The position numbers and the translations under genes were made by a program. The notes under the pieces were generated by a model, which saw only the letters and a program-made list of their open reading frames with translations, ran no database searches and had not been told where the DNA came from. From Zygnema cylindricum (Eukaryota; Streptophyta; Zygnematophyceae; Zygnematales; Zygnemataceae), in NCBI GenBank assembly GCA_037447655.1, contig JBBHKE010002078.1, positions 1 to 64,000 of the forward strand: a stretch of 64,000 bases of DNA, read 5' to 3'. Positions 6,240 to 63,346 of this stretch are shown in pieces. The stretch's first letter is position 1. Every line of letters starts with the position of its first letter.

Positions 6240-6839
6240 CACCGCCAATCGTTATTAGCGTGGGAGTTTGATTAGCGTATAATAATAATTACAGTGGTGT
6301 ACGCTATTTAAGAATTTGAAAATTTTGGAAAAAATCATACATTCTAATTGTTACAGTGGTGTACGCTATTTAAGAATTTGAAAATTTTGGAAAAAATCAT
6401 ACATTCTAATTGTTTGATTATAGTAATTTGGATCTTTGAAAAAAAAATGTCGTTCGCAAACATGCTTACACTAATATAGGTTTCCGTACAAAATCTGACA
6501 AATCCTACACAAATCGTACATTCACACGGTCGAAACTCAGATGTCGGACGAATATGTGGGAACGGGATTTTTTACGAGCTGGTTTTTTTTCCTTTTTAGA
6601 ACACACATTCTCATGCGTCTGCGGTTACTAAAACTCATTTATTGTAATTTTTTAACTTAAAAAGGTACATTTATGTACGGTCTGATACTGACCGTACACA
6701 ACTCTATTTAAGAGACAACGTACTGAAAATAACCCTAAATAGAATAAAGAAAAAAATAGAATGAACTACACTAATAGAGAATAAAACAAAAAGAGTGGGA
6801 CGGAATTAGTGTACACAACGCTAATAACGATTGGCGGTG
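6240..6839. mobile_element. MITE, TA-flanked, terminal repeat CACCGCCAATCG (copy A)
   Basis: The element starts CACCGCCAATCGTTATTAGC and ends with its inverse, and TA sits on both sides (6238-6239 and 6840-6841). That is the target duplication expected of Tc1/mariner/pogo elements. It encodes no protein. A 62-bp tandem duplication (6289-6350 and 6351-6412) explains why it is longer than its neighbour. Its left and right parts match the two ends of the 9.2-kb element at 52495-61660 in the same orientation. Confidence 0.85.
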
Positions 6840-6846
6840 TACTGTA

Positions 6847-7403
6847 CACCGCCAATCGCTATTAGCGTAGAAGTTTCTTTAGCGTATATGACTAATTACC
6901 GTGGTTTACGCTAATTAAGAATTTGAAAATTTTGTTAAAAAACATACATTCTAATTGTTTAATAATTCTAATTTGGGTCTTTGAAAAAAGTAACGTCGGT
7001 CGCAAACATGCTTACACTAATATAGGTATTTGTACAAAATCTGACAAATCGTACACAAATCGTACGTTCACACAGTCGAAACGTGGTTATTGGACGAATA
7101 TATGCGAACGAGATATTTGACAACCCGATTGATCTCCTTTTTAGACCGCAAATTCTCATGCTTCCACGGCTACTGAACATAATGAATTGTACTTTTTTCA
7201 CTTAAAAGGTACGTTTTTGTTCGGTCTGACTCTGACCGTACACCACACTATTTAAAAGATAACGTACTTCTATTTTGTACGGTACTTGGAAAATAACCCT
7301 AAATGGCGTACAGAAGAAAATAGAATAAGCTACGCTATTGGAGAATAATAAAAAAAAAGCGGGACGGAATTAGCGTACACTACGCTAATAGCGATTGGCG
7401 GTG
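6847..7403. mobile_element. MITE, same family (copy B)
   Basis: This 557-bp element has inverted ends CACCGCCAATCGCTATTAGC and TA on both sides (6845-6846, 7404-7405). It lies 7 bp from copy A in the same orientation. It looks like the cleanest copy in the window and serves as the reference. Roughly 190 bp at its left match the left end of the 52495-61660 element, and about 340 bp at its right match that element's right end. Confidence 0.88.
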
Positions 7404-8751: not shown

Positions 8752-8967
8752 CACCGCCAATTGTTATTAGCGTTGTGTACGCTAATTCCGTCCCGCTTTA
8801 TTATATTTTATTATCAAATAGAATTATCCACACTATTTTTAAAAAACCCTAATTCCTAATTATAATAGACGATTTCTTCGAAAATTTCCAAATTCCCAAT
8901 TAGCGTAAACAACACTAATTATTCGTATACGCTAAAAAAACTTACACGCTAATAACGATTGGCGGTG
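8752..8967. mobile_element. short MITE of the CACCGCC family, inverted (copy C)
   Basis: A 216-bp element with ends CACCGCCAATTGTTATTAGCG and the inverse, TA on both sides (8750-8751, 8968-8969). Its subterminal order (ACGCTAATTCCGTCCCGC near the left end) shows it is reversed relative to copies A and B and has a larger internal deletion. Confidence 0.8.
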
Positions 8968-35563: not shown

Positions 35564-36567
35564 TGTTGAAATAATAGTTTTTGGGTATTTTACAGGTCTA
35601 AATATATTTACGGAAACACAAAAGGAAAATACAGGCAACCTACTTTCATCTTTTCTCTCTTTCCCCCATATTTGTTGTAGTTACTGAAGGAGAGAGAAAG
35701 TGATGGAGCCATGGCTCCTTGAACTCCATATGCACGACTAAAGAGTGACTTAAGTCACTCTCAACAAAAGGTTGAGTCCGGCAGGACTCCAACCTCCGAC
35801 CAGCAGAGCGCGGCGTAGCCGTTAGCTCTAACCAGTCTGTCGTAGAAGTTCATTAGGATATATAGGGTTAAATATGTATTTAAACTATTGTATGGTATTG
35901 AAACCAATTAACTAAAATATGAACGAAGGAACATAAAACTAGATGAAGTTTAGTGGGGATGTCATTTCGCACGAAACAAATGAATCGGATATTTGTTTTG
36001 ACGATCGACATTCAATATCAGATTTAATTCGACGGCACACATCACTGTCGAGATCGCGGAATGGTCACTTTGGCGTTTATGGACGTGGCATGACCTGGCG
36101 CCACGTAGAGGGATCAAATTTGGTCGCAGGAATTCCGGGGAACATACGGACGAGTGGAAGGGTGACACACGTCCATTCAGAGGCCTTGTCGTACACAGGC
36201 TGTACAGAAAAGACATTAGCCGTAGTGCCTTTCTATACTTTACAGTCATATAATTAGTTCGAACTTTGGTAGATAGGGGTTGTGAGAGGGGTTTTGGACT
36301 TAAGAAAATCTGTTAGGTAGTCACCTCGCTCTAAGTTAGCTTTGTAGAAAATTGGCATTTTTGCTGGCTCATAACTTATCGGCTGGTTGGCCGTTTTCAA
36401 TGATTTTTTTTGCTACGGACTCAAAGGAGTCCAGGCTACACATGGATGTTGTCCGACTATCAGTTTGACTTCGTGGGCAGCAGTGGTTGTGGCTTGAAGT
36501 GGGTTAGTTAAAAACTATCAAGAGGCTTCCTAAATTCTGTAGTCCAATAGACGACACAAAATTGCAA
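35564..36567 (+). mobile_element. 5' LTR of plus-strand copia element
   Basis: It runs from TGTTGAAATAATAG to AATTGCA and pairs with 40906-41889. Shared landmarks are TACTGAAGGAGAGAGAAAG, GGAGCCATGGCTCC, GACTTAAGTCACTCTCAACA, TAGCCGTTAGCTCTAACCAG, CCTGGCGCCACGT, GGACTCAAAGGAGTC and the end block. Divergence between the pair is substantial, so the insertion is old. Confidence 0.85.
35770..35846 (-). other. tRNA-like module antisense within LTR
   Basis: Minus-strand ACTGGTTAGAGCTAACGGC (A-box/D-arm-like) is followed by GGAGGTTGGAGTCCTGCCGG (B-box/T-arm-like) ~40 bases later. Confidence 0.55.
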
Positions 36568-36599
36568 GCTATGGGCCCACCCTTTAGGGTACCCACCTT

Positions 36600-39500: not shown

Positions 39501-40892
39501 TGTTTGGTAGCTGAGGGGTTCACCCAAAAGGAGGGGATTGACTATGAGGAGACGTCTGCTCCAGTTGTTTGATTCCCATTAGTAAGGATTCTCCTTCGTC
39601 TGGTAGCACCGGAAGACAGGGAAATACATCAGATGGACATTAAAACCGCCTTCCTCAATGGTGAGTTAGAGGAAGAAATCTTCATGCGGCAACCGGAAGG
39701 GTTTGTGGAGAATGGGGAAGAGAGCAAAGTTTGTAGGCTCATAAAGTCATTATATGGACTTAAGCAGGCTTCCAGACAGTGGAATAAAAAACTAGATGAG
39801 TTTCTTACTGGTTAGGGATATATTCGGATCAGCTCTGACCATTTTATCTATATGTTTGAAGATGAGGATGGTGTAATTTTTATTGCAATTTATGTGGATG
39901 ATTTTTTGGTGTTAAGTAAGTCTTTGGAAAAGACTTATAAGTTAAAGAAAGATCTAAGAATCAGATTTGACATGAAGGATTTAGGGGAGGCAAGATATAT
40001 TTTGGGAATCCAAATACAAAGATAAATGGAGAAAAAGATCATTAGACTCACTTAGAAATAAGCATTAGGATAAATGCTTGAGAAATTCCAGATGGAGAAA
40101 GCAAACAATTGTACCACTCCCATGGACTTGAAGAAAGTAAGTGATGGGAGTGTAGAAGAAGGAGTGACAATCTTAGAGGATTAGATGGGTCTAGAGGAGA
40201 GAGAGTGTATGAAGTCTATTCCTTACAGACAAGTTGTAGGATGCTTGATCTACTTTATAAACTGTACAAGATCAGACATAGCGGCAGCAGTGGGAGTCCT
40301 CAATAGGAGTCTTAACGATTCTATAATGAGAGATTAGGAGGCAGCCAAGAGAGTGATGAGATATCCGGTAGGAACCAGAGAGTTGTGGTTGCATTTGGGA
40401 GGGGAGCACACTGATATCAACACTTGGAGTGATGCCAGTTATGGGGATGCACCTAGGAGAAGATGCATTTTTGGATATGTTCTGTATGTGGGGGTAGGTT
40501 TTTGCTGTAAGAGCAGTAAGCAACAAAAGGTGATTGCTCAGTCTACTATGGAGGCTCATTATATGGCCTCTTATTCTACTGTAAAAGAATTAATGTGGGT
40601 CAAGTCATTATTGCAAGAATTTGGGTATATGAAGGAGGGAGTGCATAAAGTCTTTTGCGATAATCAAGCTTCAATTGCAATTGAACCCAATCCAAATCAT
40701 CATTTCAAAGCTAAACATATTAACATAAGATTGAGCTTCGTGAGAGAAAAAGTTGAAAATAGAATTTTGAATCTTGTGAATAGATTTGATGAAGAAATGG
40801 TGGCTGACATGATGACCAAACGTGTGCCCTCTCCTAAACTAAAATATTGTAGGAAAAAATGCGGGTTGAAAGAAAAATTAAAACTAGACTAG
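36600..40892 (+). pseudogene. copia gag-pol, full domain order but many stops
   Basis: Domains lie in Ty1/copia order. Gag is at 36600-37330. A degraded zinc knuckle follows near 37430 (GHFIMDC-like). Protease keeps IIDSGASMH at 37681-37707 with the catalytic Asp intact. The integrase zinc part is near 38080-38230 (LWHKRLGHVHFD, GCAHGKAH), and the integrase core at 38433-38807 has SDNGGEHTS and EQNGVAERLNR, ending GRKPDISHLKVFGS. Reverse transcriptase at 39370-40260 has KWVFKLKVNPDN, MDIKTAFLNGELEEEIF, YGLKQASRQWNKKLDEF and YVDDFLVL with YVDD intact. RNase H and the end are at 40350-40890 (WSDASYGDAP, STMEAHYMASYS, ADMMTK). At least ten stops interrupt it, several explained by C-to-T or G-to-A changes (CAG to TAG, CGA to TGA). 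It lies between matched LTRs. Confidence 0.93.
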
Positions 40893-40905
40893 AAAATAAT
40901 GGGAG

Positions 40906-41889
40906 TGTTGAAAATAAGTATTTTCTAGGTCTAAGTTAGATGAAAAGTGAAGAGAGCGCAAGCAGTCTATCTCCACCTCTCTCTCTCCATCCCCCATACT
41001 TGTAGTCACTGAAGGAGAGAGAGAGAGTAGTGGAGCCATGGGTGCCTCAACTCCACTTGTGAAAGACTAAAGAGTGACCTAAGTCACTCTCAACAAAAGG
41101 TTGAGTCCAGCAAGACTTGAACCGCGGACCGGCAAAGCAGGGCTTAGCTGATAGCTCTAACCAGTCTGTCGTAGAAGTTCGTAGAGTATATATGGTTTGA
41201 TAAATACTTAAACAGTGTTACGTTAGTTATTCTGATTAACGGAAGTATAGACATAAGTACATTGAGTGGATTAAATATAGTACGAATATGATTCCGCACG
41301 AAACAAATAAATCTAACATTTGTTTCGACGGTTGAGATCAAATACGAAATTCTATCCGACGGCGCACTTCATCACCAAGATCTCGGAATGGTCACTTTGG
41401 CATTTAGTGACGTGGCATGACCTGGCGCCATGTGGAGAGATAAAATTTGGTCGCGGCAATTCCTAGGAGAGTATGGATGAGTGAAAAAAGGACACGCGTC
41501 CACTTAATAGCCTTCTTTTACATAGGCCGTACAAAAGGTACACCGGCAATAGTACTTTTTGGTAAGGTACAGTATTCTGATTGGTTCGTACTTCGGTAGA
41601 TAAGATTTATTAGAGGGAATTAGGACTTAGTAAATTTTGGTAGTCAGTCACCTCTCTCTTTAAGAGTTTGTACAAATTGGCATTTTTACTGCCTCATAAC
41701 TTATAGCGTGGTTGGGCATTTTCATGGATTTTATTTTCTACGGACTCAAAAGAGTCAGGCTGCACAGGGGTGCAGTCAAATTTTCTGCTTGTCAGCTTGG
41801 GTAGTTGTGGTTGGCATTTAAAGTGGGTTAGTTAATAACTATCTAGAGGCTTCTGAATTTTGTAGTTTAATGGAGGACAAAGAATTGCA
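40906..41889 (+). mobile_element. 3' LTR of plus-strand copia element
   Basis: Starts TGTTGAAAATAAG after polypurine AAAATAATGGGAG and ends AATTGCA. Pairs with 35564-36567. Directly after it comes integrase sequence of another copia copy instead of flanking DNA. Confidence 0.85.
41101..41176 (-). other. tRNA-like module antisense within LTR
   Basis: Minus-strand ACTGGTTAGAGCTATCAGC (A-box/D-arm-like) is followed by CCGCGGTTCAAGTCTTGC (B-box consensus except one base). Confidence 0.6.
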
Positions 41890-44292
41890 AGTATACCTCC
41901 AATCAGTTTGAGGATTTTCTTAGAGAAGATGGAGTGCAACCCCAAAAGATAGTTCCTAAAAATTGTGAGCAAAATGGTGTAGCCGAGAGGTTTAATAGAA
42001 CACTAAGTGATAGTGTTAGGAGTAGTTGTTAAATAAGAAGATAAGAAAGAGATTTTGGGCCGAAGCTATGAACTATGCAAACTATCTCAAGAACAGAGTT
42101 CTTACTTCGGCAGTAAAAGGCCAAACACCTTATGAGAGAAAGACAAGCCGAAACCCAGATGATTCACACTTAAAGGTTTTCGGTAGTCCAGTGTTCATTC
42201 TAGACATAGATCTGTCAAATTCGAAGTTTGATCTAAAAGGAAAACCGCGATATCTGTTATGATATGTTAAGATGTAAAGGGATATAGAGTCTATGATCTC
42301 AAGAGAGAAGATATAATCCTAGTGAAGCATCAAGTGGTCATGAATAAAGGGAAATTTATAGATCCCTTTAAGCATACAAAGACATTGAAAATTAAATTTG
42401 AGTCTGAAAATTCTGATGACTTTAAGTTTCCTAACTATCCACGTTTCCGAGAAGATGATGATCTTATAGGTACGGATCATATCAAAGAGGACTCAATTGT
42501 GGAACTCCTAGTAACAACTCCAACCAAAGCGGAAGACGTGGTGGAAATATACCATGAATCAAGTGATAGGGGAGAAGTCGAAACTGTTCGGAAGAATCCA
42601 CGAGAGCCATCTTTTCCATCAATAAAGTTTGAGGGAGAAAGAATAGCAGCAAAAGACTGCAAGAGAGATATGTTAACGACAAGGTTACCAAACTGTCTCA
42701 CCCCGATGAACCACAAACTTATAATGAGGTAATGAACAATCTTGAAAGGAACCAGTGGAAGACAGTCATTAATGTGGAGATGGCTTGGATTATGGCGGTT
42801 GATACTTAAGAGTTGGTGGATTGTCCTCCTAACATAAAGCCAATCGGTTGTAAGTGGGTATTTAAATTGAAACTTAACCCGGATAACACCATTGAGCGCT
42901 AGAAGGCTCGGTTAGTGGCGAAAGTATTTACCCAGAAAGAGGGAATTGACTACGAGGAGACTTTTGCTCCACTCGTCAGGTTTCCCGCTGTTCTGATACT
43001 TCTCACTATGGCGATAGCACAAGATATAGAAGTACATCAGATGGACATCAAGACGGCCTTCCTACATGGAGAGTTGGAGGAGGAGATTATTATGCGACAG
43101 CCCAAAGGATTTGTGGAGCAATGGGAGGAGAGCAAGGTATGATGATTGATCAAATCTTTATATGGGCTAAAACAGGCGCCACGGCAATGGAATAAAAAAC
43201 TCGATGAGTTTCTTACGAGTTTGGGATATATTCGTATCAGCTCAGATCACTCAATTTATTTGTTTGAAGATAAGGAAGAAATTATCTTAATCGCAATTTA
43301 TGTTGATGATTTGCTTGTTTTAAATAAATCTAAAGATAAAATTAATAAGTTGAAAACGAATCTATAACGTAAACTTGAAATAAAAATATAGGAGAGGCAA
43401 GGTATATTTTGGGAATTCAAGTAGAGAGAGATGGAGATAGAAAGAAAATCAGATTAACTCAAAAAGAGGCCATTGGAAACATGTTACAAAGATTCGAAAT
43501 GGACAAGGCTAATACTTGTACCACTCCAATAGAACTAAATAAGGGAATTGAGGCGTGTGTGGAAGAGGGAGTTATAATCTTGGATGATAAGTTTGACCTT
43601 GAAGAGAAAAGATTTATGCAGACAATTCCTTATAGACAAGTAGTTGGCAGCCTAATATATTTTATGAATTGTACCCGATCGGACATAGCAGCAGCTGTAG
43701 CAGTACTAAGTAGGAGTCTGAATGCTTCAACTAGGAGGGATTAGGAGGCAGCTAAGAGGGTCCTCAGGTATTTATAGGGACTAGAGATCTATGGTTGCAT
43801 TTGGGTGGGAAAAATATTGACATCGCCACTTGGAGTGATGCCAGCTATGGGGATGCTCCTATGAGGAGATGCATGTCTGGATGTGTATTGTATGTGGGTG
43901 ATGGGCTTCTTGTTTGAGCAACAAGTAGCAAAAGGTCATTGCTCAGTACACCATAGAGGCTGAGTACATGGCCTCTTGCTTTGCTGTAAAATAATTAATG
44001 TGGGTGAATTCCTTGCTAGGTGAGCTTGGTCATTTTAAGAGTGGTGTCGAGATAGTGTTTTGTGATAATGAAGCAGCCATTGCCATTTCTGCCAATCGTA
44101 AACACCATTTAAAAGCAAAACATAAAGACATTAGACTTAGCTTCGTTAGGGAAAAGGTAGAAGACATAATAATCAGTTAAAAATATCGACCCGATAATGA
44201 AATTGTAGCAGATATGATGACAAAACCTCTACTTTCCCCTAAACTAATTTTCTACAAGGAGAAGTGTGGTCTTAAATTGAAAAGTGACTAGA
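41890..44292 (+). pseudogene. copia pol fragment (integrase end, reverse transcriptase, RNase H)
   Basis: The frame begins mid-integrase (NQFEDFLREDGVQPQKI, EQNGVAERFNRTLSDSVR), then YLKNRVLTSAVKGQTPYER, then reverse transcriptase at 42830-43370 (CKWVFKLKLNPDNT, MDIKTAFLHGELEEEII, YGLKQAPRQWNKKLDEF, YVDDLLVL) and RNase H to 44292 (WSDASYGDAPMRRC, LMWVNSLLGELG, HHLKAKHKDIRLSFV, ADMMTKPLLSPKL). YVDD is intact, but multiple stops and frameshifts are present. Gag, protease and the start of integrase are absent, because the fragment begins at the end of the preceding LTR. Confidence 0.92.
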
Positions 44293-44304
44293 GAATAAAG
44301 GGAT

Positions 44305-44848
44305 GGTAGAAATTATAGTTACTTTTAGTATTTTTAGGTTTAAACTTGTAAAAGATAAAATGCAGAAAACAAGCAGAGGCAGTTTGCCTTTAACTCCTCT
44401 TTTCAACTCCCACACTTGTCAAAGTCATTAGAAGTTACAGATGGAGCTAGAGCCATGGTTGGTTGCCTATGCTATCCAAAGGAAGACAGGCAATAGTTTG
44501 GTAGGGTTACTAAAAAAGAACATGACAAACCTAAGATTTGATCCTAGTACCAGCTGTCCTTCAAATAGGACTTAGAAAAATTCAGTAGGTAGTCGCCTCT
44601 CTCCGAGAGAGCTTTTATACAAAAGATCAATTATAACCCAACATAACTTACAGCTCAGGGGAGCAAATTTAGAGATTTTTTTTGCTATCAACTCAGGGGA
44701 GTCTTGCTTTCATAGAGGTGAATGTAGTCAGAGTTTTTGTTTTTCAAGGTGGCAGTTATTCTTGCTGAACACAAAGGGGTCAAGGTTATCCTAGAGGCTT
44801 CTTGTGAGTTGCCCATTCTAAGGACCTACGGAGGTCTCAGAATTGCAA
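44305..44848 (+). mobile_element. internally deleted copia LTR
   Basis: It starts TGGTAGAAATTATAG after polypurine AATAAAGGG and ends CAGAATTGCA. About half the length of the other LTRs; the middle is missing between ~44570 and the GACTTAGAAAAATTCAGTAGG block. Half of an antisense tRNA-like module survives at ~44524-44570. Confidence 0.75.
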
Positions 44849-44849
44849 A

Positions 44850-47537
44850 CTTGAGAGTGCAGGAAAGGTAAAGACAGAAAAACATAAAGTCGATACTTTT
44901 ATCATAAAACTTCCAGATATGTATGAATCTAATGTAAACAAGGTTTAGAAAATACATGATAATCGATAGATTTGGAACTTAGTTGTAGGGATGATCTTGG
45001 TCCAAGAGAATACTATGGAGCTCGTCGAGGAACTCTTAGTATACAAGCACTTGCTGTAGGGACAGATTGGAAGAACCGAAATAAAATGAAACCTAACAAG
45101 CATTTTGGTGGAGGGGGAAGAGAAAGACAATTTGAGGGACAAGGAAAGGTTGCCTCAAAGAGAGTATGCCATTTCTACAAAAAACCCGGGCATTACATGG
45201 CATATTGCACCAGATTGGCGGAGCTACGAATGAAAGATGGACAGGCACATTCTAGTCAAGGAGGAAAAAAAAAATACTTGTGGCAACACAATTTGGTGGC
45301 GACAAAGAGGAGGCATTCGACAAGGAGCATCTCCTTAATGAAAAGAAAAAAAGAAAGAACATGGAGACAGAAATTTGTAGATGGCAAAAGTGTGCCTTCA
45401 GAGGTATGTAAAGAAACAACCGAGGATGGGAAAATTATTGACTCAACAGCATCCATGCATATGTGTAGAGATAGAAAATGGTTCATATAACTGAGAAAGA
45501 TTACTTCTCAGATGATTTTTATATTCCTGAGTTAAAAAAAAATCTGATATCTTCATCGGTGTTAGATGACAAAGAATTTGAGACAAAAACAAGAAAAGGT
45601 GTATTCACACCTAGCTTTCAAACTGAGGTTTATTTCATTGCTGAAAAGGGAAGCCAAGGCATGTTTCGGATTGTCTTAAGCAATAAAAAGAAGGGAGTTT
45701 TCTATTCTTTTGCAAATAGAATGGATGCAAAAGGTAAACCTGGATAGTTAGTGGGATATGATAAGGAGGTAAAAGGATGTAGATTTTATGATCTTAACAA
45801 GAAAGGTATAATCTTGGTAAAACATCTAGTTGTAATGGATGAAGAAAAATTTGTAGATCTCATCAAATACAACAAAATTGTCAAAATCAAATATGAAACC
45901 GACCATGACTTTGAAATAGAAGATGTACTGTGGGAGAACTCATCAAGACAATGCTTGTACAACAAAGGAAAATTTGAAGTGGAAAAAGAGATTTCTCCCA
46001 TGTCGAACGAGAGGGGAGAAGAAGCTACTAAACCGGTCTCCATGGATAGGGGAGCCAAGGAGCATCCAAAGAAGAATCCGAGGATACCATCAATACCGGC
46101 AAGTGAAATTGAGGGAGGAATAAGAAGTAGTAAAAGACTCCAAGAAAAATAGAAAGAGGGGAAAGATTATGAGGAGACCTTCGCTCCGGTAGTGAGAGTT
46201 GTATGTAGTCTGATAGCAGCGGAAAACATGGAGGTTCAACAAGAATAAATCATCTAGTTATAATGGATGAAGAAAAATCTGTAGGTCTCATCAAATACAA
46301 CAAAATTGTCAAAATCAAATATGAAACAAACCATGACTTTGAAATAGAAAATGTACTGGGGGAGACTTCTCATCAAGACAATACTGGTACAACAAAGGAA
46401 AATTTGAAGTGGAAAAAGAGATTTATCCCATGTCGAACGAGAGGGGAGAAGAAGCAACTGAACCGGTCTCCATGGATAGGGGAGCCAAAAAGCATCCAAA
46501 GAAGAATCCGAGGATACCATCAATATCGGCAAGTGAAATTGAGGGAGGAATAAGAAGTAGTAAAAGAATCTAAGAAAAACAGAAATAGGGGAAAGATTAT
46601 GAGGAGACCTTCGCTCCGATAGTGAGAGTTGTATGTAGTCTGATAGCAGCAGAAAACATGGAGGTTCAACAAGAATAAATCTTCATGAAGCAACAAGAAG
46701 GTTTTGTGGAGAATGGACAAGAGAGTAAGGTGTGCAAATTGATCAAGTTTTTGTATGAACTTAAGCACAAGCCACAACAATGGAACGTCAAGTTGGATGA
46801 GTTCTTGACTAGCCTTGAATACATCCGAATTAGTTCGGACCATTCTATCTATTTGTTTGAAGATGAGAATGGTGTAATTTTTGTTGCTATATATGTTTAT
46901 GATCGATGAGTCTTGAGAAAGTCAATTGAAAAGATCAATAAATACAAAAAAGGTTTGAGGAGACACTTGGATATAAAGGATCTACGAGTAGCTAGATATA
47001 GGAACTCTAATGGAAAGAGATAGAGAAAAATAAACAATAAAACTGACTCAGAAAGAAGAAATAGGAAATATGTTCTATTGAAAAAGGTTTCACATGGAGA
47101 AAGCCAACAGTTGCTCTACTCCAATGGATTTAAAGAAGGCGTCTGAGGGAAGCTTAGAGGGAGGAATGGGAATCCTAGATCAGATGGATGAAAAAGCGAG
47201 AGAGTTCATAAAACACATTCCTTATAAACAAATCGTATAGAGTTTAATCGACATATTAAATTTTACCCACCCAGACATAACCGCAATTGTATAAGTTCTA
47301 AGTAGGAGTCTAAATGATCATAGGAAGAGAGGCTGGGAGGAACCAAAGAAATTAATGAGATACCTGGTAGGAACCAAAAATCTATTATTGCATTTGGGCG
47401 GGGGAAATGCTGACATCACCACTTGGAGTGACGCTAGCTATGGGGAAATGGTGGCGGATATGATCACGAAATCTGTGCTTTCTCCAAAATTGCTATTTTG
47501 TAGAGAAAATTATGGATTGAAACTTATAAGTGACTAA
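44850..47537 (+). pseudogene. copia gag-pol, heavily decayed
   Basis: Gag remnant (FIIKLPDMYESNVNKV) is at 44880-44945. A zinc knuckle follows at 45166-45210 in which the second Cys is Tyr (C-H-F-Y-K-K-P-G-H-Y-M-A-Y-C). Protease at ~45436 reads IIDSTASMHMC, with the Gly of DSGA replaced by Thr. The integrase core is almost entirely lost. A linker region is duplicated in tandem (45823-46676). Reverse transcriptase pieces are at 46680-46910 (QQEGFVENGQESKVC, IYVYD replacing YVDD), and the RNase H end at 47355-47537 (WSDASYGE, ADMITKSVLSPKL). The central RNase H part is deleted (DASYG joins EMVADMITK). Not functional. Confidence 0.88.
45823..46676 (+). repeat. ~427-bp tandem duplication inside copia remnant
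   Basis: Copies 45823-46249 and 46250-46676 differ at few sites. Both contain ATGGATGAAGAAAAAT.TGTAG, GGGGAGAAGAAGC and ATGGAGGTTCAACAAGAATA. The near identity shows the duplication happened long after the element decayed. Confidence 0.9.
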
Positions 47538-50870: not shown

Positions 50871-51425
50871 CACCACCAATCGCTATTAGCGTAGTGTACG
50901 CTAAATCCGTCCCGTTTTTTTTTTTATTCTCAAATAGCGTAGCTTATTCTATTTTTTTCTTTACGCCATTTAGGGTTATTTTCCAAGTACCGTACAAAAA
51001 GAAAGTACGTTGTCGTTTAAATAGTGTGGTATACGGTCAGTGTCAGACCGTACAAAATTGTACCTTTTTAAGTGAAAAAGTATAATTAATGAGTTTTAGT
51101 AACCGCGGACTCATGAGAATATGCGCTCTAAAAAGGGGATAAAATCGGGTTGTCAAATATCACGTTCCCACATATTCGTCCAACAAACACGTTTCAACTG
51201 TGTGAACGTATGATTTTTTTACGATTTGTCAAATTTTGTACAAATACCTATATTAGTGTAAGCATGTTTGCGGCCGACATTTTTTTTTTCAAAGACCCAA
51301 ATTAGAATTATTAAACAATTAGAATGTATGTTTTTTTTCAAAATTTTCAAATTCTTAATTAGCGTAAACACGGTAATTTTTCATGTACGCTAAAGAAACT
51401 TCTACGCTAATAGCGATTGGCGGTG
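50871..51425. mobile_element. MITE of the CACCGCC family, inverted (copy D)
   Basis: This 555-bp element has ends CACCACCAATCGCTATTAGC and the inverse, TA on both sides (50869-50870, 51426-51427). It is reversed relative to copies A and B and to the 9.2-kb element that starts 1.1 kb downstream, but is alignable along its full length to copy B. Confidence 0.87.
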
Positions 51426-51427: not shown

Positions 51428-52494
51428 CCTTCTCTGTGGTACAGATATTTCGTGCTGACTTTCCTTTTGTATATTTTTTTAAGATTTTCAAAATTTGGAC
51501 TTTAACCTAGTGGCGCCAATGATAATCGAGTAAAGTTATTTATTGGCCCGACAAAATAGAGCGGACTCCTAGTAAACACTTTCACTAGAAGTGACCGTAC
51601 ATTTACTGGGACCGCCTAATGGAATCGAGGCCTAACATGGTCAATCAAAGTCAATGACCATTTAACAGCCGGCAATAGAGTGCGAACCACCAATTATTTC
51701 CCGGTCACGGGCTTGCGTCGTCATACGTGGTCGCAAATATCTTTTAAAAGGTAGATCAATCGTACGTATTCATACGATCCGTACAACTAGAGATCTTAAT
51801 AATATCACGGTGGTGACAATGCCTTCAGTCAACAAAATCGATTAGAAAGGGAGGAAGCAAAATAGTAAATATTGAAAATTGAAAGATTTTGAGGGAACTT
51901 TAAAACCGATCCCGATTCGATATTCCATGTCAAGACTTTAACACGTGTGACAGATGTACTCCAAGCTTCTCCTATACGCCCTGGGCTCCCATTGGGCCAC
52001 GACAACCCTATTTTATGGGTTGTCTTATAATTACAACCATTTGCGTTATATTCGCAATTTTTGAAAAACGAAACGGTGCGTGTTTCTATCGCACAAAACG
52101 TATCGTCCACTTATAATTCGCCGCGTTAAAAGTACAAACAGGAAAAATAAAGAAGTCCTAAGGTTAAAAATATACCAAAAACGTTTTTTCGACTATTTAC
52201 GTGTAATTGCAAGATATCTTTGTATTAACTCCAAGATTTAAGCGAATATTCTCAAAAAAAATATTTCGTCCTGTTGTCTATTCTACCCCTTGATAACACG
52301 TGTTGTTTACTAACCGATCCGCCTGATTTTCCATAGCTACCCCAATAAAATATTAGGTTTGGACCCCATTGTGACCATTTTCGTCGCGTATTTTGGCATT
52401 TTGCTCTTGTTCAAAAACGCGATGAGCCGCGTATCATATATCCGGCGGACCTCTTGCTTTATTAGAGTGTACAGTACACCGTGTCTCGCTACTA
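51428..52494. other. AT-rich spacer, no gene recognised
   Basis: Nothing coding is recognised. Short frames near 51829-52110 (-) and 52337-52562 lack motifs. A stray TACACCGTG near 52475 may be another terminal-repeat fragment. Confidence 0.45.
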
Positions 52495-54197
52495 CACCGC
52501 CAATCACTATTACCGTAGAAGTTTCTTTACCGTACACTATAAATTACAGTGGTGTGCGCTAATTAAGAATTCGAAAATTTCGAAAAAAAACATACATTCT
52601 AATTGTTTAATAATGCTAATTTGGGTCTCTAAAAAAATAAATGTCGGTCGCAAACATGCATACGCTAATAAATGTACCCGTACAGTTTTTTTGAAATCTT
52701 ACACCGTCACGAAAAACATTCGTACGTACATGTCAGACTATTTTACCACAGTTAAGCGTGGACGCTACGCCGTAAAATTTGCATTTTCGGTCCAGTTGTA
52801 AGAAGTGTAATTTGTACGGATATAATGTTTACGCAACGCTTGTTGTAAAAAAAGTTTGTCGCTTCTCCGTTGTACCTCGATACTGTACGTTAATAAGGGT
52901 TCTTTACGCTAATAATGTTGCGATGTTTTGTTTTCTTAGAGTGAATTAATGCTAATATGTGTGTTATCTCTAAAATGGTTGCACTTTCGTTTGTTTCTTT
53001 GGCTTGTGACCGGTATTAGCGTTAATGTTATGACGTATTAGAGTACACTCTTATTCTAAATTGGTCCTAAATGAACAATCACAACAACCACCTCGTCTCA
53101 AGCTTATTTTGATTGGTCGCTTAAAATTACATGTGGTCAATTTTACATCCGTGCAAACATTACGGCTCCAGCACGACGTGACAAAAACCGCTTTTCATAC
53201 CCGCCGCCATTCCAAAAACGTTCCGTACATACAATTAGGAGCAAGCAGTTGCCATGGCTCTTTCATGAAAATCTTGCGTCGCTTATCACGTGTATACTCC
53301 CTCCCTCAAAACTGACAAAAAATATAAAACTTTCCCCCTTTCTCTGAGTCGTCTAAGATATTGGGATAACTCACTAACACGCCAAATGTTAAAATTCAAA
53401 TTTTGAACACCGAAAGTTTGAGCAAAGGTTTCCCTCCTTTTTGTCCCTTTTTTTTGTTTTTTTGGTATATATATCAGGCGTTCATTCCAACAATGGCACT
53501 CTCTTACCACATTCTCCATTTACGTATGCTTTTGCATCCCTATTATTTCATTTGTATCATTTTTTGGTCAAGACGTTTTTTGTATATTTGCAAATATGTG
53601 GCCCATTACTTCCCATATTACCTCATTTTTTGCGGCTAAAAACACCGCTACGGATGGATTATTGCCACCTCTTGCCGTAGAGGACATGGATGGTTGCGAA
53701 ACCCAAGGACCCGACCCACCGAGTGAAGAACTGGAATCACCCGACGTGGACCCCCTCGTGGAAGGCGATATTACCGGAAATTTGGACTCACCGTGTGATA
53801 AGTACGGGAACGTCTCGATGTCGATCCGAAAAGTTCAACAAGTTTCAACGAAGATTACTCGACTTCGAGTAATCAATTGGATGATCGCCGACTGTCACGA
53901 GAATGGCAAGGAACTGCTCATCCCGAGGACTGTCAAGAAGTTCCCGCAACATTTTACGGGGGTGTACCGTACAAGTAACAGTTTTTACCATTGTCCTTAC
54001 CTTCATATATCAAACTCCGGTTTCCTAATTTGTGTAGGGCTGTTTCCCATTGTTTGTAATTGTTTTTTTCTTATTTAATATTTTATCTTTGATTGTAACT
54101 CCCTCATATTGAATGTTTGTGTATGCCCTGTTCTTTCCATCTTCCACCTCGTGTCGTTATGACGGCGAGTTGTGCTGTGAGTCCAACCTATGGACCT

Positions 54198-54530
54198 GCG
54201 ACGACATGGTGTCGTCGCCTAAATTTGGTGAATTTTAGGGTACTACATCAGAGTTTCGGGAAATGTTGGAGAGATCGAAAAGGCGACGACAATGCGTCGT
54301 CGCCTTAACGTTGGAAGTTTCCAAACACGACTTCGGTCGGTTAATCATGTAGCCGTTAGTATAACGTAACGCCTTAAAAATGTTGAACAAGCGACGACGT
54401 CCAATATTGGAACCGTGTGTTAAATGAAACATGAAAATCATCGTTTCGTTTCGTCGCTGCAACGTTGGAATTGCCGAATGCATCGGTGAGGCGGCGAAGT
54501 ACTTCAGTGCACGACCATACAATGTAAGTA
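54198..54530. repeat. GCGACGAC palindrome group 1
   Basis: Short inverted repeats: GCGACGAC-ATGGT-GTCGTCGC (54198-54218), AAGGCGACGAC-AATGC-GTCGTCGCCTT (54280-54304), GCGACGACGTCC (near 54391) and TCGTCGC/GGCGGCGAAG near 54455-54500. Each could form a hairpin. They lie in the transposase's first intron, before the accessory ORF. Confidence 0.75.
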
Positions 54531-54662
54531 CCCTTCGCACGAAATCGCAATTTAGTACGTTTTGAAAGTAGGGTTTTATGTTTTACTTGTTTGGTTGCGC
54601 CTCAACTCTTCGTAGCCGCATCTTCTTCAATTTTTTTTTACACGCGTTTTTTAAGCTACGCT

Positions 54663-56378
54663 ATGGAAGCCGGCAATAAGCAAATTAGGCGACGACGTAC
54701 CGTGAGGGCTCGTCGCCGTCGCTATCCTCCCCTTGTCACGGCAACCGCGGAAGAGTTAGCGAGGCAACGGGAGGCAGCAACCCCGTTAGCCATTGGATGG
54801 GAAGGAGGAGAGAGAGAAAGGAAGGAAAAAGAGGCATCTATTGAGGTGAGTAGGGTGGATGAGGTAGATGGTGAGGAAGGAAGGGGAAAAGAGGCGACGG
54901 TTGAGGAGGGGGGAGAAACTGAGGGGGGGGAAGGAGTAGAGAGGAGGAGGAGGAGGATAAAAAGGAAAAATAGGGTTTTTCATGAGAGTGAGGATGAGGG
55001 TGAAGGTGAGGTGGGGGGGGAAGAGAACATATTGAGTGGGGAGGTTAGGGGGGAGGCGGCATTAGGTGAGGAAGGAAGGGGAAAAGAGGCGACGGTTGAG
55101 GAGGGGGAGGAAAGTGAGGCGGGGGGAGGAGTAGAGAGGAGGAGGAGGAGGAGAAAAAGAAAAATTAGGGTTTTCCATGGGAGTGAGGATGAGGGAGAAG
55201 GTGAGGTGGGGGGGGAAGAGAACATATTGAGTGGGGAGGCTAGGGGGGAGGCGGCATTAGGTGAGGAAGGAAGGGGAAAAGAGGCGACGGTTGAGGAGGG
55301 GGAGGGAAGTGAGGTGGGGAGAGGAGTAGAGAGGCGGAGGATAAGAAGGAAAAATCGGGTTTTTCATGAGAGTGAGGAGGGGGAAGGGAGTGAGGTGTGG
55401 AAAGAATTCGAGAGGAGGAAAGAAATAAAGTTAGGAAAAAAAAAAGTTAGTCATTGGAGTGACGAGGATTACGTCCCCTCAACTTATTGTAGCGACGAGA
55501 GCATCGAGGATGGGGAAGAACCAGCTTATGAGAACCATACCCTCGAGGTAGAACATTCCACGGACATTCGAGTATGTAAGGATGTGGATGAGCCCGCCAC
55601 CGAGGACGAGCAAATTCCGGATAGCGAGGGACGACAACGAGAGGATGAATACGCAGATGATGACGACGTGTTCGAGGCGCCTCCATCACCGAATAGAGAG
55701 AGAGGCATTGTATTGGATAATCCGGGTCCTCAAGCTCCCTACCGAGTTGAGGATCCGGATTGGTATTTTCCTCCTCCCACGGGAGAGGAAGAAATGGACA
55801 GTTTTGTTCCTCGGGCCGAGCATTACATTCCGGTTGCCAAATGGCCGGAACATTGGAGGTACGGTGAACCTCGCCCCCTAAACTAGAGGGGAAATCCCCG
55901 TCCGGAAATTCTCGACATCCCTCCGGATGTTCCCGCACATCCAACGTGGCTCTTCATTGACGGCGACGACCGTGGCTCGACATTTGCCCACATACGCCAA
56001 TTCAATCTGGCGGATCCACGGCATACGTGGATAATTCACGACGACCGCGGATTTCGGTTGAATGTTCCCGAGTTATTACGGTTTCACCATCCGTGGGACC
56101 CCCGACTATACACCGTCTTAAAATATTGTCGAAAAACTCCCAAGGTAATGGCTTTGCGAGCGGCTCGTACTTCGGTTCTTCATAAGCTCCGAAATCTTCA
56201 AGTAAGGCGACCTCGTTTATGCGAAATCCCAAGGGTTCCCCGTCCGATTACCCCACCTCCACCACCGGGAGAAGAGGATTGGCAAAGAATAATCGAGGCA
56301 CTCACTGAACAATTGGCCGCCCAACAAGAACAAGTGGCGAGGCTCACTCGGGACTTGTCTAAAAAAAAACTGCGGTAA
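54663..56378 (+). pseudogene. acidic repeat-containing accessory ORF of the transposon, one in-frame stop
   Basis: ATG at 54663 opens a 407-codon ORF that stops at TAG 55884-55886; the same frame stays open to 56378 (571 codons if the stop is ignored). The N-terminus is Arg-rich (KQIRRRRTVRARRRRYPP). Residues ~71-240 contain 65-aa repeats (195 bp units starting 54873, 55068, 55263) with the pattern EEGRGKEATVEEG, VERRRRR, FHESEDEGEGE, ILSGE. An acidic region follows. After the stop come a part with Trp, His and Arg (WLFIDGDDRG, HTWIIHDDRG), Pro-rich PITPPPPPGEEDW, and a C-terminal coiled coil (IIEALTEQLAAQQEQVARL). I recognise no family. The mixture of basic head, acidic repeats and coiled coil suggests a nucleic-acid or protein-binding accessory protein, but that is inference. 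Conservation of the frame beyond the stop suggests a single recent nonsense change (CAG to TAG). Confidence 0.6.
54873..55380 (+). repeat. 195-bp in-frame tandem repeats
   Basis: Two full units (54873-55067, 55068-55262) and a partial third (55263-~55380) encode 65-aa repeats in the accessory ORF. Unit length is a multiple of three, so copy changes keep the frame. Confidence 0.88.
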
Positions 56379-56520
56379 TCGGTATGTTTGTGATTTGCGA
56401 ATTTTGTAGGGTTTCCTTCTCTTCTTATCTTGTCATCGCTAATCCACCCACTCAATATGTTATTATTATTAATTTGTTGTTTATGTTAAATATACAAACG
56501 ACAGAGGATCATCCATAAAG

Positions 56521-56730
56521 CAGCGACGAATTCCAGTCGTCGCTGAACCATGATTCCATTGTCGTCGCTGAACCATGATTCCATTGTGGCGACAGTTGTT
56601 TGTCGCTGAATTAGCGACGACAGATTGTCGTCGCCTATTTTAGCGACGAGCAGCTATCGTCGCAAAAATAGGCGACGACAATCTGTCGTTGCTGAAATAG
56701 GGGACGACAATCTGTCGTTGCTAATTCAGT
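56521..56730. repeat. GCGACGAC palindrome group 2
   Basis: A dense series of inverted repeats: AGCGACGA..TCGTCGCTGA, GCGACGACAGATTGTCGTCGC (56613-56634), GCGACGACAATCTGTCGTTGC and related. TCGTCGCTGAACCATGATTCC is repeated twice in tandem. They precede transposase exon 2. Confidence 0.8.
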
Positions 56731-58951
56731 TCTCAATCTTGAATATATTCAGTCACTAATTATTTTTTGTTTCCTTACTCCAATTGCAGAGTATCAAAAG
56801 GCAAGGCAGTGGTGGGTAGAAAGGGTGGCAGTACTAAAAGGGATAAGGGAAACTACTCTCACCTTATCTTCTGCAGGTTTTGGAAAGAGAAGCGTTGCGG
56901 TAATGAAGGCGTTACCGGGAAGGGGTAGGAAAGAGTTACCATGAGTGGTGAAAGTTCACATGGACTTAGTGGACGAATTCTACCGATTCCAAAAGGCGGG
57001 GATGAAAATGTCCACTGTCATTGTCGGAAAAATGGCAAATCATATCATTGCCGAAATGAAGAAAGAGGGATCGACGGATTTTATCGACGACACAGGTGAA
57101 GAGATCAAGCCAATAATCACTCGGCGTTGGATTCAACGCTTTTTCGAAAAGCATAGCATTGTCGCCCGGGCCCAAAAGGGCAAACTACAATTAAGTCCGG
57201 AGAAGGAGGAATACATCGAGAGATCCGTGGCGTATCACATGGGCGTATTAAAGAGGGGATTTCTCTCGGGTAAGCTTCGTATTTTCCTATAATTTGTTGA
57301 TTCTTGTCATATAAAGTTGTTTTTTTGTTTCCCCTTTCATTATACTTATGTTTTGTTTCCTTTTGTTTCTTTCTATATTTTTGGTGGATAATAGGTCGTT
57401 TTAACGAGGATTTGGTGGAGAATATGGACGAGACCCTTTTAATTGTAAATATGGACAACAAGAAAACTTTAGGCTTTCGCGGCAACGAGGTTGTAAAGTA
57501 CGCCGACGTTGCGGGCGGTGGAGAGTCCATGACATTGATGGTACGACTCACGGGAGGAGCGAACGCCCGAATCGAGGCTCCGATGATTATATTCACAAAC
57601 CGCGCACGAAGTTACCCGATAAAGGGCCTTTCCGATGATGTACCGGGTAAGTTTCATTAAATTTTAATCGTTGACTTTTTATTCATCTTCCTTCGTTTCC
57701 TCTATTTTTGTACGTATTCCTCGCTACGAATATATGTTTTACCGTTTCATATTGGTTTTTAATGTTTCTTCACCCCTTTCCCTCTAACTCCTTATCTATC
57801 CCTCTCCCCCCCTCTCGGCCTCCTCTCCCTCACCCACTTTCTCTCCCCCTCATGTAACTCACCCCCTTCCCTATCCTTGTTTTTTTCCGATTGTAGGAGT
57901 TTGCTACCGATCGGGCCCCAAAGGATGGAATGATAAAACCGTATTCCCGCAATGGATAGAAGAGCCGAGATCTTATCAAGGAGACCGTGAAAGACGTGAG
58001 AAAATAATATTCCTCGACAATTGTGGAGGGCACAATAATTCCGAGGAGTTAAGCCGAGTATTACTCGCCAAGAGGACAATTCTCCATTTCTTCCCTCCGT
58101 GCGCAACTCACCTTGTGCAACCCGCTGACTCCTTCGTAATTTCCAAGATTAAGGAGGTTTGGTCTCGAAAATGGGAGGATTGGAAGATGAACGGGATCGA
58201 GAAGCATGCGTGGTCCCATCCGAGTGGCAAGGGTTGGTCTGGGAAGCTACTCGGGCCCGGGAAGGCTTTCTTCCTCAAGTTGGCTCGCGATTCAATTCGT
58301 GGAGTCAACGCAATGAAAAACGACCGTGGGATGGGTTTCGCACGTAAAGCTATGATCCAGTGCAGATTGTCATTGAAGGACGGGAAATGGGAGGAGAAAA
58401 TGCTCACCCAAGATTTACAAATCATCATCATGAAATGGCGATGCCATTTCGATGGCGATGAGGTGCCAATTCCTTCTACAGTGGCACGAGATTTTGTTCG
58501 AGGCATTCTAGATGCCGACACTAGGGAGGATGAAGTCCTTGAAGACGCTGACGTTGAATGGGAGAACGAAGATTTTGAGTCCTTTCAAAATGAAGTGGTC
58601 TAGTTTGTGAAGTGAAGAATCATGTTTAGCATAATATTATAGAATAAGTGTTTTTTTTTATTTTTTTATTGATTAGTACTTTTGGATGGTTAGTGTGGTA
58701 ATTGTACTTAGCGTTACTCAAAGTTTGTCGAGTAAATTGTATCCATGATAAATTCAATATAATCAAATCCTTATTTGCTTTTCATTTTGAAATTTCTTAC
58801 TGAAAATTATGTATGGAAAATGGACTTCAATGACACTGGATGTTACGGATATTTTCAGTGTGTTTGGGGATTCGTCGGTTACATGTTGTATTCCACGGTT
58901 GACGACAAATGCAGTACATTGCTAGGTCAATTCTGGCATTAAGACAGTTTT

Positions 58952-59250
58952 AGCGACGAGACAGTCTCATCGCTGAAGTGCAGAAATTCGGTATGATAAT
59001 CCAGCGACGAGACAGTCTCATCGCTGAAGTGCAAAAATTCAATATGATAATCCAACGAAGAGACAGTCTCATCGCTGAAGTGCAGAAATTCGGTATGATA
59101 ATCCAGCGACGAGACAGTCTCATCGCTGAAGTGCAAAAATTCGGTATGATAATCCAGCAACGATAACGCCTTGTCGCTGAATGGTAAATTTGATGTTAAG
59201 TTAAGTTTTACCATCAATGACGAAAATATATCGTCGCTGAATGATACAAT
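58952..59250. repeat. palindrome group 3: four 51-bp tandem units
   Basis: Units start at 58952, 59003, 59054 and 59105. Each contains AGCGACGAGACAGTCTCATCGCT, an almost perfect palindrome, then GAAGTGCAGAAATTCGGTATG. Partial units follow (CAACGATAACGCCTTGTCGCTGA, ATGACGAAAATATATCGTCGC). The array lies ~350 bp past the transposase stop. Confidence 0.9.
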
Positions 59251-60179
59251 TTTGTCCCCACTAAAAATACAATGTATACAAAGGCGTATTAATAGGAAAA
59301 TCCCCTAAATTACTTGTGTGTGATGCGCAAAACGCCAAGTATTTACATAGACATAAATTGCAATAAATTGACCTGCCGAAATCAAAATCAATAATTATAA
59401 CTCATTTTTATTTTTTGTCTTTTTTTTTTATTTCGGCACTAAAATGCCATTTTTTTATAAATCTCGATATTAAAATAACCTTGGATCATAACTTTTTAAC
59501 AGTGACAAACACAATTTATATACAAAGCAAAATCATATGGAATAAAAAAAAAAGTTTACACACATAAAAAACAAAGAAAAAAATATGGATAACATAAAAG
59601 AAAAACAGAACGACCAATTCTTTTCTTTTACATTCCTTTCACGGTGCACATAATAATTGTCCAAAAATTTACAAATGTACATATAAACCATAGCTATGGA
59701 AATGTACAGAGATGTAATTGAAAACGGAACTAGCCAAAACTTATCTTGGAAAAATACCAAATGAACAATCCTACTAAAAACATAAAAGATTATTCCTATC
59801 AAGATTTCTCCATATTATAGTTGAATTTGTCAATTGTGAGGAAAAAACCAAACTCAACAAACATCTATGCTACTCCTACCCTACATCTTTTATAATCTCT
59901 CCTTTTTTATTTCCCCTCTCCTCTCTCACCTCTACTCCCTTCCATTCCTCGCCTCCCTCTTTCTTCTCCTACCTCACTTTCCCCCTCTCGTTCAAAACTT
60001 ATTCTTTTATATTTTAATGGTAATGCAAATTTTTTCCATATGTAGAAGGAATAATGTGTACGTCACATATGCAAATAAGACAAATAAAGGAACAAAAAAC
60101 AAATTAGCATCCACAATGAAAATAATAAAAATTGAAGCAAACAAACAAATAAACCACTATAACAAAAAATGTACAAGGG

Positions 60180-60570
60180 GGAGAGGCAGATTGAGAGAGA
60201 GGGAGTTAAGGGTAGAGACATAGAAGAAGAGGGGGGGAAGGTAAATGGGATAAAAAATAGGGAGAGAGAGGGATTCACGGATAGAGAGAGGCAGATTGAT
60301 AGGGAGAGAGGGGGAGAGGCCGATTGAGAGAGAGAAAGGGGGAGAGGCAGATTGATAGGGAGAGAGGGGGAGAGGCAGATTGATAGGGAGAGAGGGTGAG
60401 AGGCAGATTGAAAGGGAGAGAGAGGGAGAGGCAAATTGAGGGAGAGAGAGGTAAGGGTAGAGAGATAAAAGAGGAGGGGGAGAAGGGAAATGGGAAAAAA
60501 AAATAGGGAGAGAGAGGGATTCACAGATAGAGAGATTCAGATTGATAGGGAGGGAGGGGGGGAGGGGGAG
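60180..60570. repeat. GA-rich imperfect tandem repeat
   Basis: Irregular units of GGGAGAGGCAGATTGATAGG occur about ten times on the + strand. The long minus-strand frames here (Pro/Leu/Ser-rich) are composition artefacts. Confidence 0.85.
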
Positions 60571-60825
60571 GTGGAGCAAACCTATGGGGAGACGAGGAGG
60601 CGTTGAATATGGCGAGGGAGAGCGACACGCAAAAAGGAAGAGAGAGCGCTTTTCACCATATATTAAGGGAGATACAGAGGAGACAGGGTGGCTGGATGAA
60701 AAAATGGCAGGTCGATAGGGAAGAAAGTGGGATGAAATGTGGAACAGGCAGCGGAGCTTTCGCTTGCGTCCTCGTGGACAAACCCTAAAAATTGTCAAAA
60801 CGACGCTGTAAGCGTCAGATCCCAC

Positions 60826-60900
60826 CAAGAAACGGGTGGTTGTGATTGGCCAAGAAACGGTTGGTTGTGATTGGCCAAGAAACGGTTGGTTGTGATTGGC
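60826..60900. repeat. 25-bp tandem repeat, three copies
   Basis: CAAGAAACGGTTGGTTGTGATTGGC occurs at 60826, 60851 and 60876 with one mismatch in the first copy. Confidence 0.92.
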
Positions 60901-61662
60901 CAAGAACGGATCCATTCTTTTATGGATTGTCCGCATTTGGCGTTTCCTGTCCCCGAATATCACCAACGCCAAATATTGTTGTTTTATTCTATTAAATTCA
61001 AATAATAACTTTAATTAAGGGTTTTTTGGCAAATCGACCCCGTATTAACATAAACGTTTACTTTATTTTGCGATGGAGACCATATTACAATGAACATCTA
61101 TACTAAATGGGACCATTTTCACCTTAATACCATAAACCTTTACGCTAATTGAACCATAAAAATAAAATAACATTAATAATAACTATAATTGCTTACAAGG
61201 AACCTACTTGGATTTGATAACCTATATATCAAAGTTACAGTAATACGTCGGCGCAACATTGCATTCAGTTACGTTCATTTACTGAAATTGATGACTTTCC
61301 TCTGGCGAATATGTTTGACGTTCACACTGTCGACCATGCGGTTGTTGGTCAAATATGTGCGAACGTAACTTTTTACGACCCGGATTGAACCCCTTTTAAG
61401 ACCGCACATTCTCATGCGTCCGCGGCTATTAAACATAATGAGTTGTACCTTTTTATTTAAAAATGTACGATTTTGTACGGTCTGACATTGTCCGTACACC
61501 ACACTAATTAAATGATGACGTACATCCGTTTTGTACGGTACTAAAAATTAACCTTAAATAGAGTACAGAAAAAAATAGAATGAACTACGCTAATGGAGAA
61601 TAAATAAAAAAAAAAGCGGGACGGAATTAGCGTACACAACGCTATTAGCGATTGGCGGTGTA

Positions 61663-63346
<1,684 letters not shown>

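What the first reader, a model, noticed from the sequence alone, without database searches (positions are those of the whole stretch)
52495..61660. A 9.2-kb pogo-like transposon appears to be the parent of the window's MITEs
Both ends of this TA-flanked element are CACCGCCAATC-type inverted repeats. Its outer ~190 bp (left) and ~340 bp (right) line up, in order and orientation, with the two halves of the 557-bp MITE at 6847-7403 and the inverted one at 50871-51425. Inside lies a spliced pogo/CENP-B-like DDD transposase gene. Parent and offspring MITE in one window is rarely so clear. TA duplication and DDD triad both agree with Tc1/mariner-pogo mobility. The terminal-repeat match and gene content are seen; the parent-MITE relation is inferred.
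Basis: partly seen in the sequence, partly recalled or inferred. Interest (0 to 1): 0.88.

Follow-up and report, generated by a model that had tools for sequence, protein, structure and literature searches.

The report
Giant pogo transposon with extra gene
A 9-kb jumping gene and the tiny jumping genes near it share their ends and belong to one family, but this copy looks like a damaged cousin rather than the parent, and its family carries an unknown second gene hidden inside an intron of its transposase gene.

Summary
52495-61660 is a 9,166-bp TA-flanked element with about 22-bp inverted repeats. Its outer ~189 and ~342 bp align at 88% to the two parts of the MITE consensus. Left and right ends occur together in other large copies of this 353-Mb genome. 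The direct-parent claim is not borne out. The element's own subgroup consensus is 88-92% identical to the MITE consensus, while 31 MITE copies form a separate clade from 13 elements. This copy also has an in-frame stop in each of its two genes. It is a cousin. The transposase is pogo-superfamily, DD36D, most like the published Mover family, with four exons. More surprising, its 2.8-kb first intron holds a second gene of about 570-620 codons, under purifying selection in the copies tested (median dN/dS 0.26), found next to the transposase in many copies, with no relative found in Pfam or two searches of a 5.8-billion-protein set. GCGACGA palindromic hairpins lie mostly between the coding units. 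The published pogo size range is 1.2-5.2 kb.

The parts
52493..52494 (.). left TA target-site duplication
52495..61660 (+). 9,166-bp pogo-superfamily (Mover-like) element, damaged copy
52495..52516 (+). left terminal inverted repeat (about 22 bp)
53596..53974 (+). transposase exon 1 (first ATG in frame; start codon inferred)
   Evidence: splice join, nine of ten displayed homologues run unbroken across the exon 1/2 join; dN/dS 0.22-0.51 against about 0.97 in a non-coding control
54185..54475 (+). hairpin cluster 1 (GCGACGA...TCGTCGC) between exon 1 and the second gene
   Evidence: RNA fold z -3.8
54663..56378 (+). second gene (ORF2) nested in transposase intron 1, with one in-frame TAG at 55884-55886; open in L061
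56515..56735 (+). hairpin cluster 2 between ORF2 stop and exon 2
   Evidence: RNA fold -122.8 kcal/mol, z -13.4
56790..57269 (+). transposase exon 2, with an in-frame TGA at 56942-56944
57395..57646 (+). transposase exon 3 (first catalytic D)
57897..58603 (+). transposase exon 4 (second and third catalytic D; Pfam DDE_1)
58945..59245 (+). hairpin cluster 3 downstream of the transposase stop
   Evidence: RNA fold z -7.5
61639..61660 (-). right terminal inverted repeat
61661..61662 (.). right TA target-site duplication
6847..7403 (+). MITE A, 557 bp
6240..6839 (+). MITE B; MITE positions 50-113 are present twice
8752..8967 (-). 216-bp shorter MITE of the same family (about 95 bp of left end plus 90 bp of right end), TA-flanked
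50871..51425 (-). MITE D, 555 bp

Best explanation
The element is a decayed copy of a large, amplified pogo-superfamily transposon family, closest in known features to Mover. The five members read in full are 8.1-9.6 kb and carry two genes, intact or decayed: a four-exon DD36D transposase and, wholly inside its first intron and on the same strand, a second protein gene kept by selection. The transposase cuts at TA-flanked CACCGCCAATC ends and inserts at TA within a GTACAG-TA-CTGTAC-like palindrome (shown: ends, duplication, target context; inferred: cutting). Internal deletions leave shorter elements that keep both ends; one such deletion of another family member founded the 557-bp MITE, which then spread using the family's transposase (inferred from the shared junction, one clade and shared ends). 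The second protein, with a basic N-terminus, acidic in-frame repeats, a conserved orphan part and a C-terminal helix that looks like a coiled coil, most likely acts with the transposase at the DNA ends or at the target, as accessory proteins of other DNA transposons do (inferred). The palindromic hairpins between coding units probably separate the transcripts of the nested genes (inferred, weakest step).
For: Ends and TA; 20 of 20 fetched left ends and 20 of 20 right ends carry TA; 26 of 30 MITE loci have TA on both sides. Both ends in one element. Shorter forms that keep both ends, 3,365, 5,815 and 6,720 bp, interiors not read. Thirty MITE loci and D align to one consensus over its whole length, junction included, and form one clade of 31. 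Target palindrome: 9 of 26 MITE sites within 3 mismatches against 4 of 4,323 TA sites in the window. Transposase; spacing 36 in 81 of the 85 sequences with D then D/E at those columns, out of 95 aligned. ORF2: open in L061; 61 of 141 listed hits have a listed exon-4 hit 1.95-3.4 kb downstream on the same strand and none lies within 4 kb in another arrangement; 24 of the best 30 exon-4 hits have a listed ORF2 hit upstream; dN/dS median 0.255, range 0.157-0.518, 118 of 153 pairs of 18 sequences. Hairpins: 22 motifs in the element against 3 in the other 54.8 kb, with 21-27 in each of four relatives.
Against: No transposition, expression or splicing has been observed. ORF2's role is a guess: no homologue found and a poor single-sequence model (mean pLDDT 48). 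80 of 141 ORF2 hits and 91 of 150 exon-4 hits lack a listed partner; both lists are capped (138 of 1,532 and 150 of 780 candidates scored), so this may be sampling, but ORF2 copies without transposase are not excluded. The ORF2 loci used for dN/dS were chosen as free of stops, which may lower the ratio. Of the five elements read in full, ORF2 is open from start to stop only in L061 and the transposase only in L061 and L064. No element close enough to be the MITE's direct parent was found. Six exon-4 loci share 3,699 of 3,699 bp, and L061 and L064 match exactly over about 5 kb but about 95% outside it, so the apparently intact core may be an assembly product.
Confidence: 0.8

Rival explanations
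1. The window's 9.2-kb element, or its own subgroup, is the direct parent of the MITEs.
For: Matching ends in order and orientation; among five fully fetched elements it is about the closest to the MITE consensus.
Against: Subgroup consensus 89.9% (left, 1-190) and 88.0% (right) to the MITE consensus although the subgroup is tight, 97.5-97.6%; separate clades; other left ends (L098, L100, L087) are nearer to the MITE, 93.2% over 1-177 against 89.2% for the window copy; both genes of this copy are broken.
Confidence: 0.07
2. ORF2 is a host gene fragment carried by the transposon (transduplication), without a role in transposition.
For: Nested position and no homology found to any known transposon protein.
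Against: Purifying selection at dS up to about 1 across subfamilies, at a fixed place and strand relative to the transposase in the 61 paired hits. No copy outside the family was sought separately, so a host source is not excluded.
Confidence: 0.15
3. ORF2 and the transposase are expressed from one primary transcript by alternative splicing or retention of intron 1, and ORF2 is an alternative first part of a longer protein.
For: Same strand, inside intron 1; a pyrimidine-rich stretch precedes its ATG (read by eye).
Against: The one acceptor considered by eye would put exon 1 out of frame with ORF2 (no call); other acceptors were not tested.
Confidence: 0.2
4. The six loci with identical cores are recent insertions or gene conversions from one active source rather than an assembly product.
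For: 3,699 of 3,699 bp identical at six loci.
Against: L061 and L064 are about 95% alike outside the identical 5-kb block and have different flanks, which recent transposition of the whole element would not give; repeat collapse in the assembly would.
Confidence: 0.25

Closest known systems
Mover family of the pogo superfamily (Gao et al. 2020, PMC7386202; abstract, sections 6 and 8 and searched passages seen)
   Same: DD36D; no DNA-binding domain found by hmmscan; TA duplication; short TIR. Named homologues found here include Fragilaria, Phytophthora and Albugo (stramenopiles) and Spongospora and Plasmodiophora (rhizarians; group names recalled), groups in which Mover was reported; others come from liverworts and a chytrid.
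   Different: 8.1-9.6 kb rather than the 1.2-5.2 kb given for the superfamily; a second, nested gene; the host's adjacent polyubiquitin is of plant type (recalled), while Mover was reported from red algae and Chromista. Clade membership was not tested.
Lemi1/Emigrant of Arabidopsis (Feschotte and Mouches 2000; title seen in a reference list, content recalled)
   Same: pogo-like element and MITE family related by origin.
   Different: Recalled as a much smaller single-gene element; here the large and small elements are cousins, with shorter both-ended forms present.
TBE and Tec elements of ciliates (PMC7325037, searched passages seen)
   Same: Members of the wider IS630-Tc1-mariner group that carry extra genes besides the transposase, with purifying selection reported for TBE genes.
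   Different: DD34E, long TIRs in Tec, different extra genes (zinc finger, recombinase); nesting in a transposase intron is not mentioned in the passages seen.
CACTA and PIF/Harbinger elements with accessory proteins (recalled, not tested)
   Same: DNA transposons with a second protein that helps the transposase.
   Different: Different superfamilies, target duplications and transposases; ORF2 matched no Pfam family at E up to 1.

Membership tests
pogo superfamily | DDE_1 catalytic domain with DDD triad | tested here: met
pogo superfamily | TA target duplication and terminal inverted repeats | tested here: met
pogo superfamily | N-terminal HTH/CENP-B DNA-binding domain | tested here: inconclusive
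   Only sub-threshold HTH_Tnp_Tc5 in the window exon-2 piece; none in L061
pogo superfamily | reported length range 1.2-5.2 kb (descriptive, not defining) | tested here: not met
   8,130-9,639 bp in five elements
Mover | DD36D spacing | tested here: met
Mover | DNA-binding domain not detectable by hmmscan | tested here: met
   L061 protein; the window exon-2 piece alone gives a sub-threshold match
Mover | placement in the Mover clade of a pogo tree | not tested
   reference sequences were not held; the element is therefore called Mover-like only
Mover | reported hosts: red algae, Stramenopiles, Rhizaria | tested here: inconclusive
   host unnamed; polyubiquitin of a type recalled as plant-like beside the element
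MITE of this transposon family | both ends of the large element, no transposase gene, TA duplication, many similar copies | tested here: met
direct offspring of the window element's subgroup | MITE ends as close to the subgroup consensus as subgroup copies are | tested here: not met

The most novel reading that the evidence does not exclude
A new lineage of giant two-gene pogo transposons in a green-lineage eukaryote, in which an orphan protein nested in the transposase intron is an obligate partner of transposition or sets the strict palindromic target, with hairpins insulating the nested transcripts.
Probability: 0.35. Interest if true: 0.68.

Novelty: new variant of a known kind. Interest (0 to 1): 0.5.

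Why it matters
pogo elements gave rise to CENP-B and other host genes (abstract of PMC7386202) and are described there as 1.2-5.2 kb long, with one or two reading frames encoding the transposase. A family nearly twice that size with a selected second gene of no known relatives, nested in an intron, widens what this superfamily can be and offers a native pair to test whether pogo transposition can depend on a partner. Both-ended forms from 15.7 kb down to 216 bp in one genome, together with a MITE clade whose exact parent was not found, are a good case for studying how MITEs outlive their source.

Tried and rejected
Direct parenthood was tested with 25 left and 25 right ends and found unlikely. 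CENP-B domain: not listed by Pfam. Host identity: Closterium was considered because of genome size; PMC10407611 (searched passages seen) gives 438, 703, 876 and 975 Mb for its four main strains and no match to 352.8 Mb was seen, so the host is left unnamed. ORF2 homologues: none in two searches, the first with the whole protein, whose repeats may have crowded the word list (7,987 candidates scored), the second with residues 340-621 (3,429 candidates); both find only relatives that share short exact words. Fold of a 163-aa ORF2 piece: too poor for a fold search, none was run. Phage records: no match to exon 4. Solved structures: exon 4 gave only one weak histone match, E 0.82. A first alignment of MITE loci without turning them to one strand was useless and was redone. 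A genome count of the MITE junction and a search for nearer parents with joined queries were not obtained because the genome machine stayed busy; a search for the empty site was never sent.
Full report
What is there. The element at 52495-61660 begins with CACCGCCAATC, ends with GATTGGCGGTG and is flanked by TA. Its inverted repeat is about 22 bp, with mismatches in this copy; beyond that the two ends differ. The window lies in a 352.8-Mb genome of 2,689 contigs. Four relatives fetched in full are 9,412, 8,130, 9,563 and 9,639 bp and carry both ends with TA on both sides (the last bases of L064's right end are changed).

MITEs. MITE A gave 52 matches from 40 scored candidates out of 4,095 first-look candidates, 40 of them nearly full length at 92-100%, so the copy number is a lower bound. 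Thirty loci were fetched, MITE A itself among them; 26 have TA on both sides. They are 95.5-98.4% identical to their majority consensus, and window MITE D is 93.5%. These 30 were the best hits to A, so the divergence is biased low. They are 554-564 bp long and D is 555 bp, and they align over the whole consensus, including the junction between the left part (1 to about 190) and the right part (about 219 to 560); this points to one founding deletion. MITE B (6240-6839) has positions 50-113 twice, and 8752-8967 is a shorter derivative with different breakpoints.

Parent or cousin. With 40 scored left-end candidates of 2,384 and 40 right-end candidates of 3,096, 14 left-right pairs on 13 contigs, the window included, lie in the right order within 20 kb and none in opposite orientation; one left end on C816 pairs with two right ends. 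Sizes run from 3,365 to 15,716 bp, seven of them 9.1-9.6 kb; the interiors of most were not read. But the subgroup to which the window element belongs is 97.5-97.6% uniform at its ends and only 89.9% (1-190; 91.5% over 1-177) and 88.0% identical to the MITE consensus (20 fetched left ends plus 5, and 20 right ends plus 5). The consensus of all 25 reaches 92.1% left (1-190) and 89.8% right. Some other left ends reach 93.2% over 1-177 (L098, L100, L087). No right end exceeds 88.6%. A tree of 13 elements and 31 MITEs (548 columns, midpoint-rooted) splits them into two groups with support 1.0 and 0.975. The window element is therefore best read as a cousin of the MITEs' source; the compared ends were chosen for likeness to the window element, which limits this test.

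Transposase. Exons 53596-53974, 56790-57269, 57395-57646 and 57897-58603 join in frame with GT-AG borders; the first donor is changed in L063. In L061 and L064 the product is open, 605 aa in L061; L062 has a stop in exon 1, L063 has stops and a frame shift, and the window copy has a stop in exon 2. Ninety-four homologues score at E 0.001 or better, of 7,994 candidates scored; the top one has 52% identity over 81%. Nine of ten displayed homologues run through the exon 1/exon 2 join; P0063 begins after it. The aspartates are 36 apart in 81 of the 85 sequences that have D then D/E at those columns, out of 95 aligned including the L061 query. Exon 1 shows dN/dS 0.22-0.51 in ten pairs of five copies, broken ones included, against 0.96-0.98 in three non-coding control pairs. 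Exon 4 gives a median of 0.17 (maximum 0.64) over 250 pairs of 23 sequences; of 30 loci, L058 and six copies identical to another were dropped. Eleven of 30 fetched loci, the window's own included in the 30, read open over exons 2-4; one of these (L058) holds N there, and six are identical to each other. Mover in Gao et al. 2020 has DD36D and no DNA-binding domain visible to hmmscan; both hold here for L061, but clade membership was not tested.

Second gene. ORF2 (54663-56378) lies wholly in the 2,815-bp first intron on the same strand. In L061 it is 621 codons and open; in the window it has one in-frame TAG; in L062, L063 and L064, cut by alignment to the window, it is interrupted, although the matched C-terminal stretch is free of stops in all three. 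Its C-terminal 282 aa found 141 matches, 138 of 1,532 candidates scored. Of these, 61 of 141 have a listed exon-4 hit 1.95-3.4 kb downstream on the same strand, and 24 of the 30 best exon-4 hits, 59 of all 150 listed, have a listed ORF2 hit upstream; no pair within 4 kb is in opposite orientation or reversed order. dN/dS over 118 of 153 pairs of 18 sequences (those with dS 0.05-1.5) has median 0.255 and maximum 0.518; 16 of the 18 were picked for having no stop. No Pfam family at E up to 1 and no protein at E 0.001 was found. The N-terminal part carries in-frame tandem repeats of about 195 bp. A single-sequence fold of the last 163 residues is poor except for a helix at 129-161.

Hairpins. GCGACGA or TCGTCGC occurs 22 times in the element and 3 times in the remaining 54,834 bp; the relatives have 21-27. 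Most lie in three clusters: between exon 1 and ORF2, between ORF2 and exon 2, and after the transposase stop; a few lie inside coding parts. As RNA the clusters of the window copy fold with z -3.8, -13.4 and -7.5. A role in separating nested transcripts is my inference.

Target. Over 26 MITE sites the sequence around the TA reads like GTACAG-TA-CTGTAC; 9 of 26 are within three mismatches against 4 of 4,323 TA sites of the window. The motif was taken from the same sites and the cut-off chosen after seeing the logo. Four of 26 MITEs have another family end within 40 bp, so part of the flank signal may come from neighbours.

Caution on intactness. Six loci are identical over all 3,699 bp compared, and L061 and L064 match exactly over about 5.0 kb but at about 95% outside that block. 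Repeat collapse in the assembly is the simplest account; gene conversion is possible. No claim of recent activity is made.

Literature. Searches (titles and starts of abstracts of the 8-20 papers listed by each) showed none on a pogo element with a nested second gene or on Mover in a green-lineage host; most subscription papers and Repbase were not searched. The pogo size range of 1.2-5.2 kb is from PMC7386202 section 8. Extra genes in TBE and Tec are from passages of PMC7325037; its section on pogo was also read.

Noticed in passing
62201-63346 (+): A polyubiquitin gene of five identical repeats plus a final Q starts 540 bp right of the element, so the element lies upstream of it; the repeat has residues recalled as plant-type.
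   Followed up: partly
about 26300-26700 and 36500-46200: Copia-like retrotransposon remnants (integrase, reverse transcriptase and RNase H-like stretches) in several open pieces, judged by eye.
   Followed up: no
15560-16460: Long GA-rich simple repeat that is open in several frames; it aligns to the GA-rich tracts inside the element (60176-60570).
   Followed up: no
L061 3506-8516 (element 3157-8167) and L064: Exact identity over about 5.0 kb between two elements that are about 95% alike elsewhere; six loci share the core. Possible assembly repeat collapse.
   Followed up: partly
28851-29276 and 34729-35115: Two nearly identical open stretches about 5.9 kb apart, a direct repeat of unknown nature.
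   Followed up: no
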